Of a DNA stretch of 64,000 nucleotides, positions 36,994 to 44,702 are shown piece by piece. Made by a program: the position numbers and the translations under genes. This DNA comes from Salinicola acroporae. GTDB lineage: Bacteria; Pseudomonadota; Gammaproteobacteria; Pseudomonadales; Halomonadaceae. Position 1 is the first letter of the stretch. Every line of letters begins with the position of its first letter. Under the pieces are notes generated by a model. The model saw only the letters and a program-made list of their open reading frames with translations, was not told where the DNA came from and searched no databases. Location: contig NZ_PZJW01000008.1 of assembly GCF_003206615.1 (NCBI RefSeq), positions 18,713 through 82,712 of the forward strand. Reading direction: 5' to 3'.

Positions 36994-37032
36994 ACGAGCG
37001 ACGAGCGACGAGCGACGAGCGACGAGCGACGA
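36994..37032. repeat. Heptanucleotide tandem repeat (ACGAGCG)n
   Basis: Five exact copies of the 7-base unit ACGAGCG plus a partial sixth, beginning 2 bases after the cfa stop codon. The copy number could vary by slippage. It lies before the terminator, so it would be in the 3' end of the cfa mRNA. Confidence 0.85.
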
Positions 37033-37061
37033 AGATTATCGAAGGGCGCGACCCACGTGAG

Positions 37062-37095
37062 AAAAAAGGGCCTGCCATAGCAGCAGGCCCTTTTT
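37062..37095. terminator. Bidirectional terminator between cfa and the SMC gene
   Basis: An 8-bp GC stem (37068-37075 / 37083-37090) has A-rich sequence before and TTTTTCTTT after. It can thus end both the + strand cfa transcript and the - strand condensin-like operon. Confidence 0.9.
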
Positions 37096-37250
37096 CTTTG
37101 CCCCACTTCATCGCCGCGAGTCTCCCAAGGGGCTTGCCCCTCGCCATCATGAGCGGAAGGGTCATCAAGGCTCGGCCAGCAGTATGCCGATCCTGGCGAA
37201 TCCAACCCTGAGCCCGTTATCTCCAGGCCCGCCAAAGCGAGCCTGGCCGA

Positions 37251-40200
37251 TCACTCCACCGGAGCCGGGGTCACATGAATCCCGAACAGGCTGGCTTCGC
37301 CGCTGCCCCGACCGGTCTCCTCGGGAGCCACTGCCTGCCCCTCACGCACGATGACGTGACCGCCCTGCCCCTGCTGGCCGCCGATCACGCTGCCGACCAG
37401 GTAGGTGGGAAAGATGCTCGGGTCGTTCTCGTAGTTGGGGTTGTGGATCAGGCCGATCATCTGGAAACGCCCGCGGGTGTTGCGCAACGACTCCAGCGAA
37501 TCCTGGATCAGGCGGCGGTGGGAGAGCTTGGAGAACAGGCCATCGAGCAGGATGACACTCTCGCGGCTGGCACGGGCCCGACGCTTGTGACTGCCGGGTA
37601 GTTCGCGCAGCTCGCGCTCGATGGCGAATTCGGAAAGCTTCACCAGCCACATCAGCGAGACCGCTTCGCGCTGGCCTTCCGACATATCCTCGTTGAGCGA
37701 GAACAGCCGGCCGTGGGGACGGATAGCATCGTGCTTCAGGCGGATGGTGACGTCGCAGAACAGCCCGCGGTAGATGCGTCGGCGAATCTGGCGAGTCAGT
37801 TCGTCGTCGCGGCCGCCCTTGGCCTGCGCACCGTCGCTGGCCTGCTCGAGGCGCCGCCGCTGGACCGCGAGATGGGCGTCGATGTCCGCCAGCAACTGCT
37901 GGATCAGCTCCCGCACCGACTCGTCGGCGATCAGGTCGGCCTTGACCTCAAAGTAGGCGCCGCCCCCGCTGGAGCGTTTCGCGACACGCTTGAGAATCTC
38001 CAGATTGCCGGCCGCGTCGATGATGATCGAACTCAGGCGCTCGACCAGGGTGTCCTCGATCTGCTCGCGAGACGCGTGCAATCGGGCCACGCGCTGGCGA
38101 TGTTCGTCCAGTTGCCCTCCCAGCTGGCGGTGCAGGCCGCGCAGCGACTCCAGCGCCGCGTGGCTGACGCCCTCCAGCGTATCCAGCCGCGCGCGTTCGG
38201 TTTCGTTGAACAATCGGCTGGCACTGGCCGACTCCAGCGACAAGGCCAGCGCCTTCTCCCGGGCCGTCACATCCCGGGCCTGACGCTCCCGATTGCGGGC
38301 ACGCTCGCCGAGGTTGAGCCCGCCCAACCCTTCCAGCAGAGTCTGCTGACAGGTCTCCAGGGCCTCGAGGTCGAGCGCGGCGGCATCCGTCTCTTCGCCG
38401 GGATCATCCAGTGCCGACGCCAGCCACTGGCACCACTCGTCCATGGCCGCGTCGAGCCGTGGCGCGTCGATACCCACCGCCGGCCAGCGGGCCGTGGCAT
38501 CCGCGGCGGCACGTTCCAGCCAGCCCTCGGGCAGTTGACGCAATACCTCCAGCCACGCCACCGCCAGCTGATCCACCACCATCAGCGCCTGCTGGTGACG
38601 GGCCACGCGGGTTTCCACCACGCCCTGCTCGCGGCCATTGGCCTTGCGTCGCTCCCGCGCCTCCTTGAGCGACTGCTTGAGGCGGCCGATGTCGCGTTCC
38701 AGGGTGCGATTCCCCCCCTGATCGTCGCGGACTTCCAGAAATGCCCGGATCCGCGCGAAATCGAAGTCGGCTCGTCGACTGGCCTGGGCCAGGGCGGCCG
38801 CCAGCGCCGTTTCCCGCGCCTCGGCATCGCGCATGAAGCCCGGCCCCTCCTCGGCGACGAATGCCGCCAGGCGGCGCAGACGTTCACGCTCCCCATCCGC
38901 GAAAAGCTGACGCAGCTGCTCGCGACACTCGTCGCGACGGGCGTTCAACTCTTCGCTCTGCAGCGCGATTTCGGCGAACCGTTCCTCGTGCTCGGTCAAG
39001 GTTTCGGTCAGCGCCGCCAGACTGGCATCGATCTCCTCCAACCGCTCGACACCACCGGCCGCAGCGAATCGCTCCGCCGCCAGCCAGAGCTCACCGTGGC
39101 TCTCCAGTTCCCTGGCGGCCTGCTCGCGCTGCGGGCTCAGCGTCTCGATACGAGCCGCGGCGGCCTCGCTCTCCTCGACGGCCGCGTCCAGCGCGGGTTC
39201 ACCGCCCTCCTCGAGGAAACGCTGGAAATCGTCGATCGATTTCATCGCCGCTTCGCTCAAGCGCGGCTCGAGCGCCTGTCGCTCGCTCTCCGCCCGATCG
39301 CGCTGCTCTTCCAGCGCCGCCAGTTGCACTTCGACATCCTGGCTGACCGCTTCGTCGGCCTGGAGCGCAAGATGGAAACGCTCGCCGTGGGGATCGAGGC
39401 GCTGGACCTCGGCTTCCAGCGCCAGCCGGCGTTCACGGTCGACCGCGAGACGCTGCTGGGTCTCCTCTCGCAACGCAGTCAGATAAGCAGGATCGAGCGC
39501 GGCCTTGACCGCCAGCGTCTCCACGCCTTGCACCGCCCCCAGCGGCAACTCGCCACGTGCCAGCGTTGCCTGCAGACGACCGGCCTCGAGCACCGGAACG
39601 CCGCAGCCGGCATCGACCAGACACTGCGACGCTTCGCGGGCGTAGTCCTCACCTTCGACCACCGGCGCGAACAGCTGGCCGGCAGCCTGGGCCAGCCAGT
39701 CGCGGCGCTGACCGTCTTCCGCCTCGATACCGGCCAGCACCTCGTGGAGGGGGCGGAAGGCGATCTCCCGGGCATCGAGACACGCGCGGGCTTCGGCCTC
39801 GGACGCGAGCCGGGCCAGGGGATCGCCACTCAAGCTTTCGAGATACTGCTCGCGCGCGTCGATGGCGGCAGCCAGTGTCTCCTGCTCTCTCAGCAGGCGG
39901 GGATAGCGCGCCTTGGCATCCTTGAGCCAGGCCGACGGCGCCTGTTCGCTCAGCTCCCGGAAGTCGTGCAGCGCCTGCCGCAGGATGCCGAGCTGCTGGG
40001 CCTGCTGGTCGAGTCGATGCAGCCGGTCCTGGGCTTCCCGTGACTGGCGATAGAGCGTGTCTCGCAGGTGTACCGGCGAGGCTTCGCCGTGCCAGTGACG
40101 ATAACGCTCGGCGGCGTCCCTGAGCGGCGCCAGCCGTTCGAGGCGCGCCTTGGCATCGCTTTGGGCTCTCCGGCTCTCGGCCAGCGCCTGTTCGTGTGCT

Positions 40201-42167
40201 GCCAGCGCGTTCTTGCGCTCGCTCCAGAACCCCACCGCCGAATGCTCGGACCAGCGTTCGGCGAAGGTCTGCCAGGCCTGCCGGCCGGAGGCCAGCGGCG
40301 CCAGCTCCCCTTCCAGGCGCTGGCGCTGTTCGCGTCGCGCCTGCAGCGCTTCGCGAACACTCTCGCGCTGGCTATCCAGTGAGTTTGCCTGGGCGTCCCA
40401 ATCGTCAAGCTGCGCTTCCAGGTGCTCCCGCTGCGCTTCCTTGGTCGCCAGCAGTTCGTCGGGTGAGCTATCGGGATGTTCGGCAAGGAACGCTTCGTAC
40501 CACTGCGCCGGCTGCTTGAGCTCGCCCATCCGCCCCAGGTGGTCGGCATGCGCCTTGCGGGCCTCGGCCAGCCTCGCCTGCGCGCTCTCGCGGGTGGCTT
40601 CCGGCGTTTCCAGTTCGGCCTCGGTGAAGAGCCCCTCGGCCAGCGCCTGGGTGTAGACGCTCTGGTTGTCGATGAAGTCGCGCTGGCGCGATTCCAGCTG
40701 CTCGCGCTCGTGCTCCAGCCGCTCCATCTCCTCGTCGAGCTGTTCGGCATCGAGACGCAGCGAACGGCGATACTCGCGGTCGGCGATCACCTCTTCGCGG
40801 AAACGGTTGCCATCCATCGACTCGAACGCCTCGGCGGCGTCGTCGAGCAGGCCGAGGGCACGATAGCGGGAGGCGTCGTCATTGAAGGCGTGGCTGTCCG
40901 CCAGCCAGGCCCGCGCCTGGTCGAACGAAACATGGCCGATGTCGCGGGCCGTGGTCCAGGTCGCCTGCGGCAGGTGGATCAGACGACGATGCGTGTCGAC
41001 TCGCGCGCCGCGCTCGGAGAGCGCCAGCCGCACGTTGCGCTCGGCCTGACGCGACAGCTTGGCCAGCAGCCAGGTGGAGACCCGCGGCCGTTCGGTATCG
41101 CCGGCCACCCACGCAAAGCCAACCGCGTTGTCGGCCACCTCCTTGGCGGGCTCTGCCTGCTCGACGCTGCCGCTGCCTCCCGGCAAGCCCTGCAGCGGCG
41201 CCAGCGCCTGCCCGCCGAGCAGCCGCTCGGCCTCGAGCAGCGAGGCATCGAGCTCGGCCAGCTGGCGGCGCGCCTCGAGCAGGCCCTCGCCCTCTTCGTT
41301 CAGGGTGGCCAGCCGCTCGACCTTGTCGCCGGCGCGCTGCTGGTCGCTTTCGGCTTCCGCAAGCCGATGGCGCAGCTCGGTAATCCGGGTGCCGGAATTG
41401 AGGATCACATCCTCGATCAGTTCCTCTTCCTCGTCGGTCTCGCCGCGAGTCGCCCCGGACAGGATCTGTGGCGCCAGCACCTCGTAGAAGAACGCCTGGT
41501 CGGCCTTCTCGCCGGCCCGCGGCTTGATGGCATTGAATATCTGGCTCTTGTCGGCGCCGCCCTCCTTCTGGAATGCCGCCATCTGCGCCAGCTCACGGCG
41601 TGAGATATGCGCTCCCACCGCTTCCAGCCACTCCTCCCGGTTGTGGGCCCGGGTCACTCCCTGGGCGCGCATCGTGCTCTGGAAGTCGGCATTGGCGTAG
41701 AGCGCCAGCTTGCCATCGCGGGTGATGTGATGCACCGGCACGTCGGCCAGCCTGCCCGGATAGTGGTAGAAAACCAGCCCGCTGCCATCGCTGTAGCCGT
41801 ACATGCCGAACACGAAGGTCTCGCCGGAGACTTCCTCGCCGGCGACGGCCAGCATATCGTCCTGCTGGCTGGCGCTGTCCTGGGCGCGAAACTCGACGCG
41901 CAGGTGTGTCCAGCTGCGGCCCTCGCCGTTGACCTTCGACGGCGAGCACTTGCGCCGAGTCCGGGTCAGGAGCTGGCGATCCCGGGAGAGCATGCCGATC
42001 AAGGCCTCGGCCATGGTGGTCTTGCCGAAGCCGTTCTCCATGCTGATCGCGCTCGACTGCCCGCGCAGGTCGAGCAGCAGATGACGCATCTTGGCTTCCC
42101 AGGGCGAGGCGATGTCACCGTGCTTGTTGAGCAGGTTGGCGATCTCGATACGGTTGATGACACTCAC
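37251..42167 (-). CDS. MukB/MksB/JetC-like SMC ATPase, 1638 residues
   Basis: 1638 residues, very large for this class (MukB is about 1490, MksB and JetC often about 900-1200). The N-terminal ATPase half has a P-loop-like ENGFGKTTMAEAL (residues 44-56), in which the usual first Gly is Met43. The middle (about 240-1400) is mostly charged and coiled-coil-forming, with a possible hinge. The C-terminal half has a signature MSEGQREAVSLMW (about 1495-1507) and a Walker B-like VILLDGLFSKLSHR (Asp1542-Gly1543). There the normal catalytic Glu is Gly. It overlaps the MukE-like gene as ATGA. The combination with a MukF-like and a MukE-like gene points to a condensin or plasmid-defence complex. Whether it hydrolyses ATP is in doubt. 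Confidence 0.82.
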   Translation of the reverse strand: MSVINRIEIANLLNKHGDIASPWEAKMRHLLLDLRGQSSAISMENGFGKTTMAEALIGMLSRDRQLLTRTRRKCSPSKVNGEGRSWTHLRVEFRAQDSASQQDDMLAVAGEEVSGETFVFGMYGYSDGSGLVFYHYPGRLADVPVHHITRDGKLALYANADFQSTMRAQGVTRAHNREEWLEAVGAHISRRELAQMAAFQKEGGADKSQIFNAIKPRAGEKADQAFFYEVLAPQILSGATRGETDEEEELIEDVILNSGTRITELRHRLAEAESDQQRAGDKVERLATLNEEGEGLLEARRQLAELDASLLEAERLLGGQALAPLQGLPGGSGSVEQAEPAKEVADNAVGFAWVAGDTERPRVSTWLLAKLSRQAERNVRLALSERGARVDTHRRLIHLPQATWTTARDIGHVSFDQARAWLADSHAFNDDASRYRALGLLDDAAEAFESMDGNRFREEVIADREYRRSLRLDAEQLDEEMERLEHEREQLESRQRDFIDNQSVYTQALAEGLFTEAELETPEATRESAQARLAEARKAHADHLGRMGELKQPAQWYEAFLAEHPDSSPDELLATKEAQREHLEAQLDDWDAQANSLDSQRESVREALQARREQRQRLEGELAPLASGRQAWQTFAERWSEHSAVGFWSERKNALAAHEQALAESRRAQSDAKARLERLAPLRDAAERYRHWHGEASPVHLRDTLYRQSREAQDRLHRLDQQAQQLGILRQALHDFRELSEQAPSAWLKDAKARYPRLLREQETLAAAIDAREQYLESLSGDPLARLASEAEARACLDAREIAFRPLHEVLAGIEAEDGQRRDWLAQAAGQLFAPVVEGEDYAREASQCLVDAGCGVPVLEAGRLQATLARGELPLGAVQGVETLAVKAALDPAYLTALREETQQRLAVDRERRLALEAEVQRLDPHGERFHLALQADEAVSQDVEVQLAALEEQRDRAESERQALEPRLSEAAMKSIDDFQRFLEEGGEPALDAAVEESEAAAARIETLSPQREQAARELESHGELWLAAERFAAAGGVERLEEIDASLAALTETLTEHEERFAEIALQSEELNARRDECREQLRQLFADGERERLRRLAAFVAEEGPGFMRDAEARETALAAALAQASRRADFDFARIRAFLEVRDDQGGNRTLERDIGRLKQSLKEARERRKANGREQGVVETRVARHQQALMVVDQLAVAWLEVLRQLPEGWLERAAADATARWPAVGIDAPRLDAAMDEWCQWLASALDDPGEETDAAALDLEALETCQQTLLEGLGGLNLGERARNRERQARDVTAREKALALSLESASASRLFNETERARLDTLEGVSHAALESLRGLHRQLGGQLDEHRQRVARLHASREQIEDTLVERLSSIIIDAAGNLEILKRVAKRSSGGGAYFEVKADLIADESVRELIQQLLADIDAHLAVQRRRLEQASDGAQAKGGRDDELTRQIRRRIYRGLFCDVTIRLKHDAIRPHGRLFSLNEDMSEGQREAVSLMWLVKLSEFAIERELRELPGSHKRRARASRESVILLDGLFSKLSHRRLIQDSLESLRNTRGRFQMIGLIHNPNYENDPSIFPTYLVGSVIGGQQGQGGHVIVREGQAVAPEETGRGSGEASLFGIHVTPAPVE

Positions 42168-43105
42168 CGGCGATCCTCCTCGGCGTTCTCGGTCGTCGAT
42201 CCATCCGCCTCTTCCGATGGCTGGTCGAACATGTCGGCGGCGCGTGTTCCGGACTCTTCGCCGTCATCGGGGTCGGCATCTCGAGCACCGACGTCCGCAT
42301 CCTGCACCGGCGCCTCGTCGGCGCGGTCCTGCCCGGCACCCTCGAAGGGCCGGTCCGAGGGCTCGGTGGAAGTCAGCTCGATCAGGTGGGTCAGGTGGTT
42401 GACCCCGATCTGCTCGGCCTCCAGCGCGCCCAGCAGGGTCTGCTGCCAGACGTCCTCGTCGGCGGCTTCGCGGACCGCCTCGAGATGACCGGCACGCACC
42501 AGCAGGTCGATGAACGCCTTGACCCGGCGCGGGATGTCCTCGCCGCGCTCGTCGAGCAGCACCCGGCTGTTCTCCGGTGCCCGATCGCCCAGACCGCGCA
42601 GCGTCTCCAGTTGATCGCGCACCAGTTCGACCAGCTCGCGGGTGACGAACGTGGCCTCCTGATAGCGGCTGACATCGGAGAGCGCGCGGTTCAGCCGGGT
42701 GTAGATCAGGGTGTGCAGCAGCAACCACAGCTGGAGGTACCACAATGCCAGCTCGGCCCGGCTCTCCTGGCGCAGCTTGAGCGCCTCGAATACCGCTTCA
42801 CGGGTATAGAGCGGCGGCTGCTCGAGCTCGGGATCCGGTAGCAGCGCGAAGAAACGCGATCCCGGCGCGATGCCCGGATAGTCGCCAGACTCGAACGCCT
42901 TGAGCCGCAAGCCCTGGCCAGCCAGGAAGTCCCGCAGCGCCTCGCGCTCGTTCTCCTGGGCGTCGTCGATCAGGGCACAGACGTCGCGCTCGGAGAGCTG
43001 GCCCTCACGCGCGGCGCGGCGCTTGCGGCCACCGCTGGGGACCCGTTCCGCGGTTCGGTAGCGCAGCAGATAGGCAACGACTTCACCCATTTCCATCATG
43101 TTCAT
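42164..43105 (-). CDS. MukE/MksE/JetB-like accessory protein
   Basis: 313 residues. The N-terminal about 230 residues are helical with winged-helix-like parts (LSERDVCALIDDAQENEREALRDFLAGQGLRLKAFESG). They include a hydrophobic stretch ELALWYLQLWLLLHTLIYTRLN that is probably a buried helix. The last about 80 residues are very acidic and rich in Asp, Glu, Pro and Ala, probably disordered. Its place between a MukF-like gene and an SMC gene, with ATGA overlap to the latter, is the usual MukE/JetB position. The sequence match alone is weak. The function is inferred mainly from operon position. Confidence 0.65.
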   Translation of the reverse strand: MNMMEMGEVVAYLLRYRTAERVPSGGRKRRAAREGQLSERDVCALIDDAQENEREALRDFLAGQGLRLKAFESGDYPGIAPGSRFFALLPDPELEQPPLYTREAVFEALKLRQESRAELALWYLQLWLLLHTLIYTRLNRALSDVSRYQEATFVTRELVELVRDQLETLRGLGDRAPENSRVLLDERGEDIPRRVKAFIDLLVRAGHLEAVREAADEDVWQQTLLGALEAEQIGVNHLTHLIELTSTEPSDRPFEGAGQDRADEAPVQDADVGARDADPDDGEESGTRAADMFDQPSEEADGSTTENAEEDRR

Positions 43106-43108
43106 CAG

Positions 43109-44557
43109 TCAGACTTCCTGTTCTTTCGTAGGCGCCGGTCGCAGGCGCAGCGAGGGCGTCACCGCGCCCTCGATGCGGCGTCCGTCGGGCAGCGCGATCG
43201 CGAATGGGGTGTCGTCGATACCGACGCTCAGGTGGTCGTCGAGCAGTTGGGTATCGACGAAGGTGTTGAGCAGTTGCGGCAGGCAGTCCAGGGTTTCGGT
43301 GTGCACCGAGTCCGAACCCGTCTCGAAGTGGTGCCAGCCCTCGCTGAGGGCGTCCGGCAGCGACAGCGGCGACTGGCGCAGACGCCGGCGTAGGGCCGGG
43401 CCACGCGCCTTGAGATAGCGCGCCAGCAGCGGATCGGCACTGGGCCTGTCACTGGCCTCGTCGAATACCAACGCCGCCCCGCTGCGCTCGGCGCGACGGG
43501 TTTCCACCAGCGGCAGCAGCGTCTCCACCCGAGGCATCGCCACTTGCGTGCCGAGCGGCATCATCCGCGCGACCACCGCATCCTGCAGACGTTCAGGGGG
43601 CGGAGAGAGCAGCAACTGGTGCGCCAGCCCGGCGAAGTCGATCACGCCCATCGACTGGATCCGCCCTTCGGCGATATCCGACAGCAGCTCGGACAGTCGC
43701 CGGGAAAGGTTCTCGATGGCGTTCAGCACACGGCCGATAGTGGCGGAGAGCATGCGCAGGTCCCACTCCTCCTCCTGGCGCTCGGCCCAGGCCTCGAAAT
43801 GGCCGATCAGGGTTGGAGCCGAGAGCTGCGAGCGCGCGCTGAGCAGCGTGCTCTGGATGGTGCTCAACGCATTGTGGTAGTGACGCTCGTTGTCCAGCAG
43901 CGCGGCCAGCTTGCCCTCGTGGGTCGGATTCTCGCGCACCCGCCGCAGCTCCTGGGTCAGCGCGCGAATCGCCATCAGGATCTGCTGGGTGATGTCGGGC
44001 ACGCGGGCATAGTCCCCACGCGAAAGCGCGGCGATGACCTTGGCGGCGTCGTACTCCGAATAGAGCAGGTCTTCGACCTGGCTGGCCAGGGTGACTGCCT
44101 GGCGACCGCTGGGAGTCAATCGTACCTGGCCGGTCTGGCCCTGCTTCTCGATCAACGCCGTGCGCTTGGTACTGCGGCCACTGCGCGTTCCCGGCGAGGT
44201 TTCACCTTCGTCGGCCCCGCTGTCGGCGGCATCCGGCTGCCACTCCCGATAGTGGATCTCGCTGGGGGTCGCCAGCAGATTGATGACGAAGCTCAGGTCG
44301 TCCGCGGGCAGCTCGGGATAATCCCCTCGCAGGTGTGCCAGGCAGCGACGCTGGGTGACGAAGGCACTATTGGTGGCGAAATCCACCTCGAGCAGGTAGT
44401 CCAGCAGCAGGCAGCCCAGGTCGAGCCAGTAGCCGTCGCGAAGGCCGCGACGCTGCTCCTGGGAGACCTGGACGAAGGGCGAGCCCGGTTCGTGAGCGCT
44501 GTCGTGTAGATCCAGCAGCCGCGTCGTCGCGACCAGCAGCTTGTTCCAGGCGGTCAT
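43109..44557 (-). CDS. MukF/MksF/JetA-like kleisin
   Basis: 482 residues, the length of MksF/JetA. It is predicted to be mostly helical. An N-terminal region (about 1-160) could hold winged helices (VRLTPSGRQAVTLASQVEDLLY). A long helical middle has EELRR/LxxLLDNERHYHNAL-like repeats, and a C-terminal part has LPDALSEGWHHFETG and ends with a small beta-rich winged helix (FAIALPDGRRIEGAVTPSLRLR). It is the first gene of the minus-strand operon, 3 bases before the MukE-like gene. Kleisins bridge the two SMC heads. No family motif was decisive, so this rests on size, helicity and operon order. Confidence 0.65.
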   Translation of the reverse strand: MTAWNKLLVATTRLLDLHDSAHEPGSPFVQVSQEQRRGLRDGYWLDLGCLLLDYLLEVDFATNSAFVTQRRCLAHLRGDYPELPADDLSFVINLLATPSEIHYREWQPDAADSGADEGETSPGTRSGRSTKRTALIEKQGQTGQVRLTPSGRQAVTLASQVEDLLYSEYDAAKVIAALSRGDYARVPDITQQILMAIRALTQELRRVRENPTHEGKLAALLDNERHYHNALSTIQSTLLSARSQLSAPTLIGHFEAWAERQEEEWDLRMLSATIGRVLNAIENLSRRLSELLSDIAEGRIQSMGVIDFAGLAHQLLLSPPPERLQDAVVARMMPLGTQVAMPRVETLLPLVETRRAERSGAALVFDEASDRPSADPLLARYLKARGPALRRRLRQSPLSLPDALSEGWHHFETGSDSVHTETLDCLPQLLNTFVDTQLLDDHLSVGIDDTPFAIALPDGRRIEGAVTPSLRLRPAPTKEQEV

Positions 44558-44702
44558 GTCGACTCCAGACGGGGAACAACGAGAGAAAGCGCAGCATTAT
44601 GCCAAGGATGGCCTGCCGGGTCATGGCGATCCGCGTAACGAAGTCGCCATTGACTGCTATGGTGAGAAGTCCCTTCATCCACGATTCACCGGGAGTTCTC
44701 GC

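What the first reader, a model, noticed from the sequence alone, without database searches (positions are those of the whole stretch)
37251..44557. MukF-MukE-MukB/JetABC-like operon without JetD
Three overlapping genes encode proteins of 482, 313 and 1638 residues in the order kleisin-like, MukE-like, SMC-like. This is the order of MksBEF and of Wadjet JetABC. No JetD (topoisomerase VI-like nuclease) gene flanks it: one side is cfa, the other an aldo/keto reductase. It may be a divergent chromosomal condensin, or a plasmid-restriction system that uses an unlinked nuclease. The small subunits have only weak family resemblance.
Basis: partly seen in the sequence, partly recalled or inferred. Interest (0 to 1): 0.7.

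Follow-up and report, generated by a model that had tools for sequence, protein, structure and literature searches.

The report
Condensin-like Wadjet core without its nuclease
A salt-loving bacterium keeps the DNA-reeling motor of an anti-plasmid defence system but lacks the DNA-cutting subunit; relatives have lost and regained the cutter at the same spot, so this may show how a defence machine becomes a chromosome organiser.

Summary
The three genes are real and form one operon, jetA-jetB-jetC (kleisin, KITE, SMC), in Salinicola. Pfam, NCBIfam and PADLOC do not recognise any of the three. The jetD question is answered from relatives: an intact jetD lies directly 3' of jetC in 21 of 67 named loci and in two relatives from other families, but not in the window, and no JetD match was found anywhere in this genome. 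The jetABC core sits at one chromosomal site across Halomonadaceae (44 of 50 non-Salinicola loci share flanking genes). It is intact and under equally strong purifying selection with or without jetD. jetD turns over: remnants show loss in Billgrantia, while the jetC tail points to a gain in one Salinicola salarius strain. All 68 family members examined have Gly where type I JetC and MukB have the catalytic Walker B Glu. Best reading: a JetD-less core of an unclassified Wadjet-like type, kept as a nuclease-independent, chromosome-acting SMC complex. Chromosome function is inferred, not shown. JetD-less members of the Wadjet group were already known; the repeated turnover at one fixed locus and the Walker B change are what is new here.

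The parts
43109..44557 (-). jetA/mukF-like kleisin gene, 482 aa
   Evidence: ORF; AF2 model (pLDDT 64.3, pTM 0.38) with MukF 3euh_B ranked first by VIA-align (Z 12.5, rmsd 2.4, 127 aligned) and Wadjet-II JetA 9qe0_E third (Z 11.1, rmsd 13.5, 216 aligned); plain Foldseek gave no match at E<=0.001; no Pfam/NCBIfam/PADLOC family
42164..43105 (-). jetB/mukE-like KITE gene, 313 aa
   Evidence: ORF; AF2 model (pLDDT 68.3, pTM 0.55), Foldseek's first 13 PDB rows are all MukE, E 1.6e-3 to 5.2e-2; no sequence family
37251..42167 (-). jetC/mukB-like SMC gene, 1638 aa, GTG start, overlaps jetB by 4 bp
   Evidence: ORF; head motifs at both ends, coil-like middle; relatives
42015..42044 (-). Walker A SMENGFGKTT (JetC residues 42-51)
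   Evidence: MENGFGKTT in 66 of 68 family members by pattern
37668..37694 (-). ABC signature NEDMSEGQR (JetC residues 1492-1500)
37518..37556 (-). Walker B / D-loop VILLDGLFSKLSH (JetC residues 1538-1550), Gly where type I JetC has the catalytic Glu
   Evidence: [VIL]DGLFS in 68 of 68 JetC examined; DE in two type I JetC
39468..39830 (-). central conserved, Pro/Gly-richer island of JetC (residues about 780-900), candidate hinge
   Evidence: profile and invariant columns; assignment is inference
37061..37096 (-). terminator-like hairpin with A tract before and T tract after, 3' of jetC
   Evidence: read by eye; the consensus scan did not list it
44596..44624 (-). promoter-like site (TG before the -10) about 40 bp upstream of jetA
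   Evidence: 9 of 12 matches; 2 found in the region, 0.5 expected

Best explanation
The operon encodes the JetABC core of a divergent, unclassified Wadjet-like SMC system, without the JetD nuclease. Shown: the gene order; the SMC ATPase motifs; MukE- and MukF-like folds (modest models); an intact jetD in the same operon in relatives; conservation of jetABC at one chromosomal site; purifying selection on jetABC with and without jetD. Inferred: in Salinicola the complex is a dimeric SMC motor or clamp that loads on DNA and acts on chromosome structure or segregation alongside Smc-ScpAB, as MksBEF does in P. aeruginosa. jetD is an optional effector gene that turns the same motor into an anti-plasmid nuclease where it is present.
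For: 18 of 18 Salinicola genomes (own included) and 6 of 19 other same-family genera carry it, none of 21 genomes of other families. jetD directly 3' of jetC in 21 of 67 named loci and in two relatives from other families, L144 and L145. JetD matches Pfam JetD_C and PADLOC JetD1 down to E 2.9e-19, with its Toprim-type E and DxD motifs in 21 of 21 (motif meaning recalled). 21 of 24 operon-bearing genomes lack any JetD match. dN/dS of JetC is 0.058-0.136 in 12 JetD-less pairs against 0.051-0.163 in 8 JetD-bearing pairs. Shared flanking genes, same side and orientation, in 44 of 50 non-Salinicola loci. The same kind of jetC tail (IHVT-P/E-A...) in 16 of 16 JetD-less Salinicola loci printed indicates a genus-old JetD-less state. 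Canonical SMC and ScpA are also present, MukB is not. A review states that P. [quoted passage not shown]
Against: No experiment bears on chromosome function. Profile comparison with two type I JetABC sets was not significant for JetA, JetB or JetC, so homology to JetABC rests on the JetD partner, gene order, motifs and modest fold matches. Walker B lacks the canonical Glu, so motor activity itself is open. Patchy presence outside Salinicola (6 of 19 genera) is unlike an essential condensin.
Confidence: 0.6

Rival explanations
1. Still an anti-plasmid or anti-phage system: without JetD the core compacts, silences or mis-segregates foreign circular DNA, or recruits an unrelated host nuclease.
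For: Family members with jetD look like full Wadjet systems; one relative lies on a P. aeruginosa conjugative plasmid beside jetD. Smc5/6-style silencing without cleavage is described in PMC10586767 (passages).
Against: Fixed chromosomal site and genus-wide retention are unlike mobile defence genes; no JetD elsewhere in 21 of 24 operon-bearing genomes; no common replacement gene 3' of jetC across the JetD-less loci.
Confidence: 0.2
2. An ATP-binding clamp without productive hydrolysis: the Walker B Glu-to-Gly change makes JetC a static DNA tether, not a motor.
For: Gly in 68 of 68, also in relatives that keep jetD. MukB E1407Q is hydrolysis-deficient and abolishes DNA entrapment (PMC7617805, passages).
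Against: Walker A, signature and H-loop region are otherwise strongly conserved, which suggests a working ATPase with another catalytic residue.
Confidence: 0.13
3. A decaying leftover of a Wadjet system after loss of the nuclease.
For: jetD remnants in two JetD-less loci show decay of jetD itself; jetC of S. tamaricis is broken into three frames.
Against: jetABC is otherwise intact across the loci, with unchanged strong purifying selection.
Confidence: 0.03
4. Another SMC-like defence type, such as Lamassu, misread as JetABC.
For: Weak PADLOC LmuB matches (E 0.013 for the window's JetC; 1.7e-9 for L055), over the coiled-coil region.
Against: A kleisin/KITE/SMC three-gene order with a JetD-type nuclease, and MukE/MukF folds; a type I JetC also matches LmuB (E 1.9e-13).
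Confidence: 0.04

Closest known systems
Wadjet type I (JetABCD; MksBEFG/EptABCD)
   Same: Gene order kleisin-KITE-SMC-(nuclease); JetD of the relatives is homologous to the PADLOC JetD1 set.
   Different: The window's JetA, JetB and JetC are not recognised by PADLOC type I-III models; JetC is 1.5-1.67 kaa against about 1.2 kaa in L131 and L132; Walker B is DG, not DE; jetD is missing in the window.
MksBEF of Pseudomonas aeruginosa
   Same: JetD-less, chromosomal, coexists with SMC-ScpAB (the last recalled); PMC10586767 says it likely arose by loss of JetD.
   Different: Different sequence family; here congeners and sister species still carry, or have regained, jetD at the same locus.
MukBEF
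   Same: MukE and MukF are the best fold matches; no nuclease.
   Different: No sequence match to the MukB family (own genome); coexists with SMC and ScpA; Walker B differs.
Wadjet type II (Neobacillus vireti JetABC, 9qe0/9qe1)
   Same: JetA fold match.
   Different: No sequence comparison could be made; JetD2 and JetD3 PADLOC models found nothing in 200 genomes each, and no control rang.

Membership tests
Wadjet (JetABCD) | JetD Toprim nuclease encoded in the operon | tested here: not met
   Absent beside jetC and no match in the genome. Met in 21 of 67 named relatives.
Wadjet (JetABCD) | JetA kleisin of MukF/JetA fold | tested here: inconclusive
   MukF Z 12.5 and Wadjet-II JetA Z 11.1 head the VIA list, but the model is modest (pTM 0.38), Foldseek E>0.001, and helical bundles score high by chance.
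Wadjet (JetABCD) | JetB KITE of MukE/JetB fold | tested here: met
   Foldseek's first 13 rows are all MukE (E 1.6e-3 to 5.2e-2); E. coli Wadjet chain 8as8_C (taken to be JetB) Z 7.7. Moderate strength.
Wadjet (JetABCD) | JetC SMC ATPase with Walker A, signature and Walker B including the catalytic Glu | tested here: not met
   Walker A and signature present; the Glu is Gly in 68 of 68.
Wadjet (JetABCD) | Recognised by type I-III JetA/B/C sequence models | tested here: not met
   PADLOC: no JetA, JetB or JetC model for the window's three proteins, for L144 JetA/B/C or for 37 JetA. Of the other JetC scanned, L056 matched two JetC3 models weakly (best E 7e-5, coiled coil).
Wadjet (JetABCD) | Restriction of small circular plasmids | not testable with these tools
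   Needs experiments.
MksBEF/MukBEF (JetD-less condensins) | Kleisin-KITE-SMC operon without a nuclease gene | tested here: met
MksBEF/MukBEF (JetD-less condensins) | Matches a MukB/MksB sequence family | tested here: not met
   No Pfam or NCBIfam MukB/MukE/MukF/Mks family at E<=1; PF04310 absent in the genome.
MksBEF/MukBEF (JetD-less condensins) | Stable chromosomal locus, vertically inherited | tested here: met
   Shared flanks in 44 of 50 non-Salinicola loci.
MksBEF/MukBEF (JetD-less condensins) | Role in chromosome organisation or segregation | not testable with these tools
   Needs imaging, Hi-C or deletion.

The most novel reading that the evidence does not exclude
A fourth, unclassified Wadjet-like type with an SMC subunit lacking the Walker B catalytic Glu. 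Its jetABC core has become a vertically inherited chromosomal SMC complex in Halomonadaceae, while jetD behaves as a swappable cassette that is lost and re-acquired precisely at the 3' end of jetC, so that the complex switches between condensin-like and plasmid-cutting states.
Probability: 0.35. Interest if true: 0.8.

Novelty: new variant of a known kind. Interest (0 to 1): 0.6.

Why it matters
Reviews propose that chromosome condensins such as MksBEF and MukBEF arose from Wadjet defence systems by losing the nuclease. Here that step can be studied among close relatives: two S. salarius strains, and sister Chromohalobacter, Halomonas and Billgrantia species with and without jetD, at one locus and with the same core. 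Comparing them would test what JetABC does without JetD and whether adding JetD is enough to make it a defence system. An SMC family without the Walker B Glu also tests how far SMC motors need it.

Tried and rejected
Unlinked nuclease: no JetD in the genome by PF09983 or by the family profile A2. Another gene taking jetD's place: the first ORFs after jetC in JetD-less loci fall into many unrelated groups. A 130-aa ORF shared by five of them proved to be a truncated globin that also follows jetD in JetD-bearing loci, so it is a neighbour, not a substitute.

Sequence homology to type I JetABC: hhalign not significant for JetA, JetB, JetC (only two type I sequences per side, so underpowered). PDB sequence searches gave only chance or coiled-coil hits. 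The JetC3 model over 143 genomes of the class gave only partial, weak, coil-like hits. Type II and III comparators were sought through JetD2/JetD3 models, nothing found and no control rang; so whether the DG Walker B also occurs in types II or III is untested.

Loss-only history: rejected as a full account. Equal-cost parsimony needs 13 changes (root with jetD 13, without 14) and loss-only needs 28. jetD dS between L094 and L125 (1.68) far exceeds jetC dS (0.53), and the jetC tail of L103 is unlike the other Salinicola, so gains or replacements occurred too.

Foldseek on the JetA model gave unrelated helical proteins first; the MukF match appears only on realignment.

Full report
OBSERVATION. 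The three minus-strand genes are as described, apart from a 3-bp gap between the first two. The window lies in a 4.37-Mb, 32-contig genome. Named near-copies are Salinicola: JetC is 98% identical to S. lusitanus CR50. None of the three proteins passes a curated cut-off in Pfam or NCBIfam, and none matches a JetA, JetB or JetC model of PADLOC. phmmer against the PDB gives nothing credible.

WHAT THE PROTEINS ARE. JetC (1638 aa) has a P-loop near its start (SMENGFGKTT), a signature (MSEGQR), a Walker B-like strand and an H-loop region near its end, conserved heads and a less conserved, coil-like middle with a more conserved central island. JetB's AF2 model finds MukE in Foldseek's first 13 rows; an E. 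coli Wadjet chain, taken to be JetB, is in the VIA list at Z 7.7 among many winged-helix proteins. JetA's model is modest (pTM 0.38); on realignment MukF ranks first (3euh_B Z 12.5, 127 aligned) and Wadjet-II JetA third (9qe0_E Z 11.1), but Foldseek alone did not rank them and helical bundles score high by chance. I take kleisin-KITE-SMC as well supported by the whole, less so by JetA alone.

JETD BELONGS TO THE FAMILY. In relatives a gene lies directly 3' of jetC, usually with a 4-bp overlap, that matches JetD_C in Pfam over its cut-off and PADLOC JetD1 down to E 2.9e-19. Among 67 named loci from a capped scan (114 relatives found, best 80 kept, 67 distinct), 21 have it. L064 and L065 are identical JetC copies in one assembly, so 67 loci are 66 genomes. 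Outside the group, the C-head profile A8 found 3 of 369 genomes of the class, own included; the other two (L144, L145) carry jetD, jetC and jetA of this type, L144 with jetB as well. A truncated relative on P. aeruginosa plasmid pPUV-6 also sits beside jetD. None of the L144 JetA/B/C proteins matches PADLOC either, while the JetD proteins of L144 and L145 do. I read this as one unclassified Wadjet-like type.

THE WINDOW LACKS JETD. PF09983 finds nothing in the genome (one control genome rang). The family profile A2 finds JetD in 4 of 58 genomes: three beside jetC (G008, G021, G035) and one in another family, where it belongs to a type I Wadjet. So 21 of 24 operon-bearing genomes have no JetD match anywhere.

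A STABLE CORE, A MOVING FOURTH GENE. 18 of 18 Salinicola genomes (own included) have the operon, 6 of 19 other same-family genera, 0 of 21 genomes of other families (the tool's family includes Oceanospirillum sanctuarii, which NCBI puts in Oceanospirillaceae). Neighbours of the window's operon (cfa, lysR, thiamine-binding protein, aminotransferase) flank it, on the same side and strand, in 44 of 50 non-Salinicola loci. jetABC order holds throughout; only S. tamaricis has a broken jetC. JetC dN/dS is 0.058-0.136 in 12 JetD-less pairs and 0.051-0.163 in 8 JetD-bearing pairs; JetD itself is 0.205-0.311 (simple counting method, pairs chosen by me). jetD state changes at least 12 times on the JetC tree, 11 forced by well-supported branches.

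Direction of change: JetD and JetC distances correlate (r 0.77 over 210 non-independent pairs) with the S. salarius JetD mostly inside the range of the rest, which suits shared history. Remnants of jetD in L087 and L105, of 47 JetD-less loci tested (window and L104 included), show loss; a third in L100 is seen by eye only. Against pure loss: the S. salarius DSM 18044 jetC tail is unlike the other 16 Salinicola tails printed, while its JetD-less sister (L102) shares tail and the sequence just after it with the window, so a gain there is likelier; L094 and L125 have mismatched jetD and jetC divergence. Parsimony alone does not settle the root (13 against 14). A truncated globin gene follows jetD closely in 8 JetD-bearing loci and follows jetC equally closely in 6 JetD-less ones, so the change removes or adds almost exactly jetD.

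WALKER B. The strand reads [VIL]DGLFS in 68 of 68 JetC examined, L144 and L145 included (L104 and L077 were left out), and DGLFS in pPUV-6. Two type I JetC read DEAFSKMD and DESFSKMD, so the catalytic Glu position holds Gly. MukB E1407Q is hydrolysis-deficient (PMC7617805, passages). Whether another residue replaces it, or hydrolysis is weak, is open. I could not compare types II and III.

MECHANISM. Most likely the complex loads on DNA and acts in cis on the chromosome, without cutting; that Wadjet cores extrude DNA and activate JetD at completion is taken from PMC12647877 and PMC10586767 (passages). The genome also has SMC and ScpA but no MukB match, the setting of a second condensin.

KNOWN OR NEW. 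[quoted passage not shown] aeruginosa MksBEF from JetABCD by loss. Searches for Wadjet with Halomonas gave one paper (listing only), for Salinicola with condensin none, for 'Wadjet type IV' none, in an open-licence library only. Data S1 of PMC7617805 was not readable, so this clade may already be listed there. What I add is the repeated turnover of jetD at one fixed locus, the persistence of the core, and the Walker B change.

Noticed in passing
L068, L071, L082, L096, L113, L117, L120, L124 (jetD present) and L088, L089, L106, L111, L112, L119 (absent): A truncated haemoglobin gene (PF01152) follows the last jet gene by -3 to 17 bp, as if a fifth operon member in part of the family.
   Followed up: partly
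L028 11142-13909: P. aeruginosa plasmid pPUV-6 holds a truncated relative of JetC with a jetD behind it; a Tn3-family transposase and mercury-resistance genes lie just upstream.
   Followed up: partly
L104 / L057 (S. tamaricis F01): jetC is split into three overlapping frame pieces in a single-contig assembly; sequencing error or a real break cannot be told.
   Followed up: no
L064 and L065: Assembly MFB021 holds two contigs with identical JetC; probably an assembly duplicate.
   Followed up: no
window 36995-37035: Short tandem repeat (gctcgtc...) between jetC and cfa.
   Followed up: no
L067 just 3' of jetC: By eye, a shortened remnant of the globin gene lies where jetD would be.
   Followed up: no
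L131 5130-12329: A typical type I Wadjet operon in another family of the order.
   Followed up: yes
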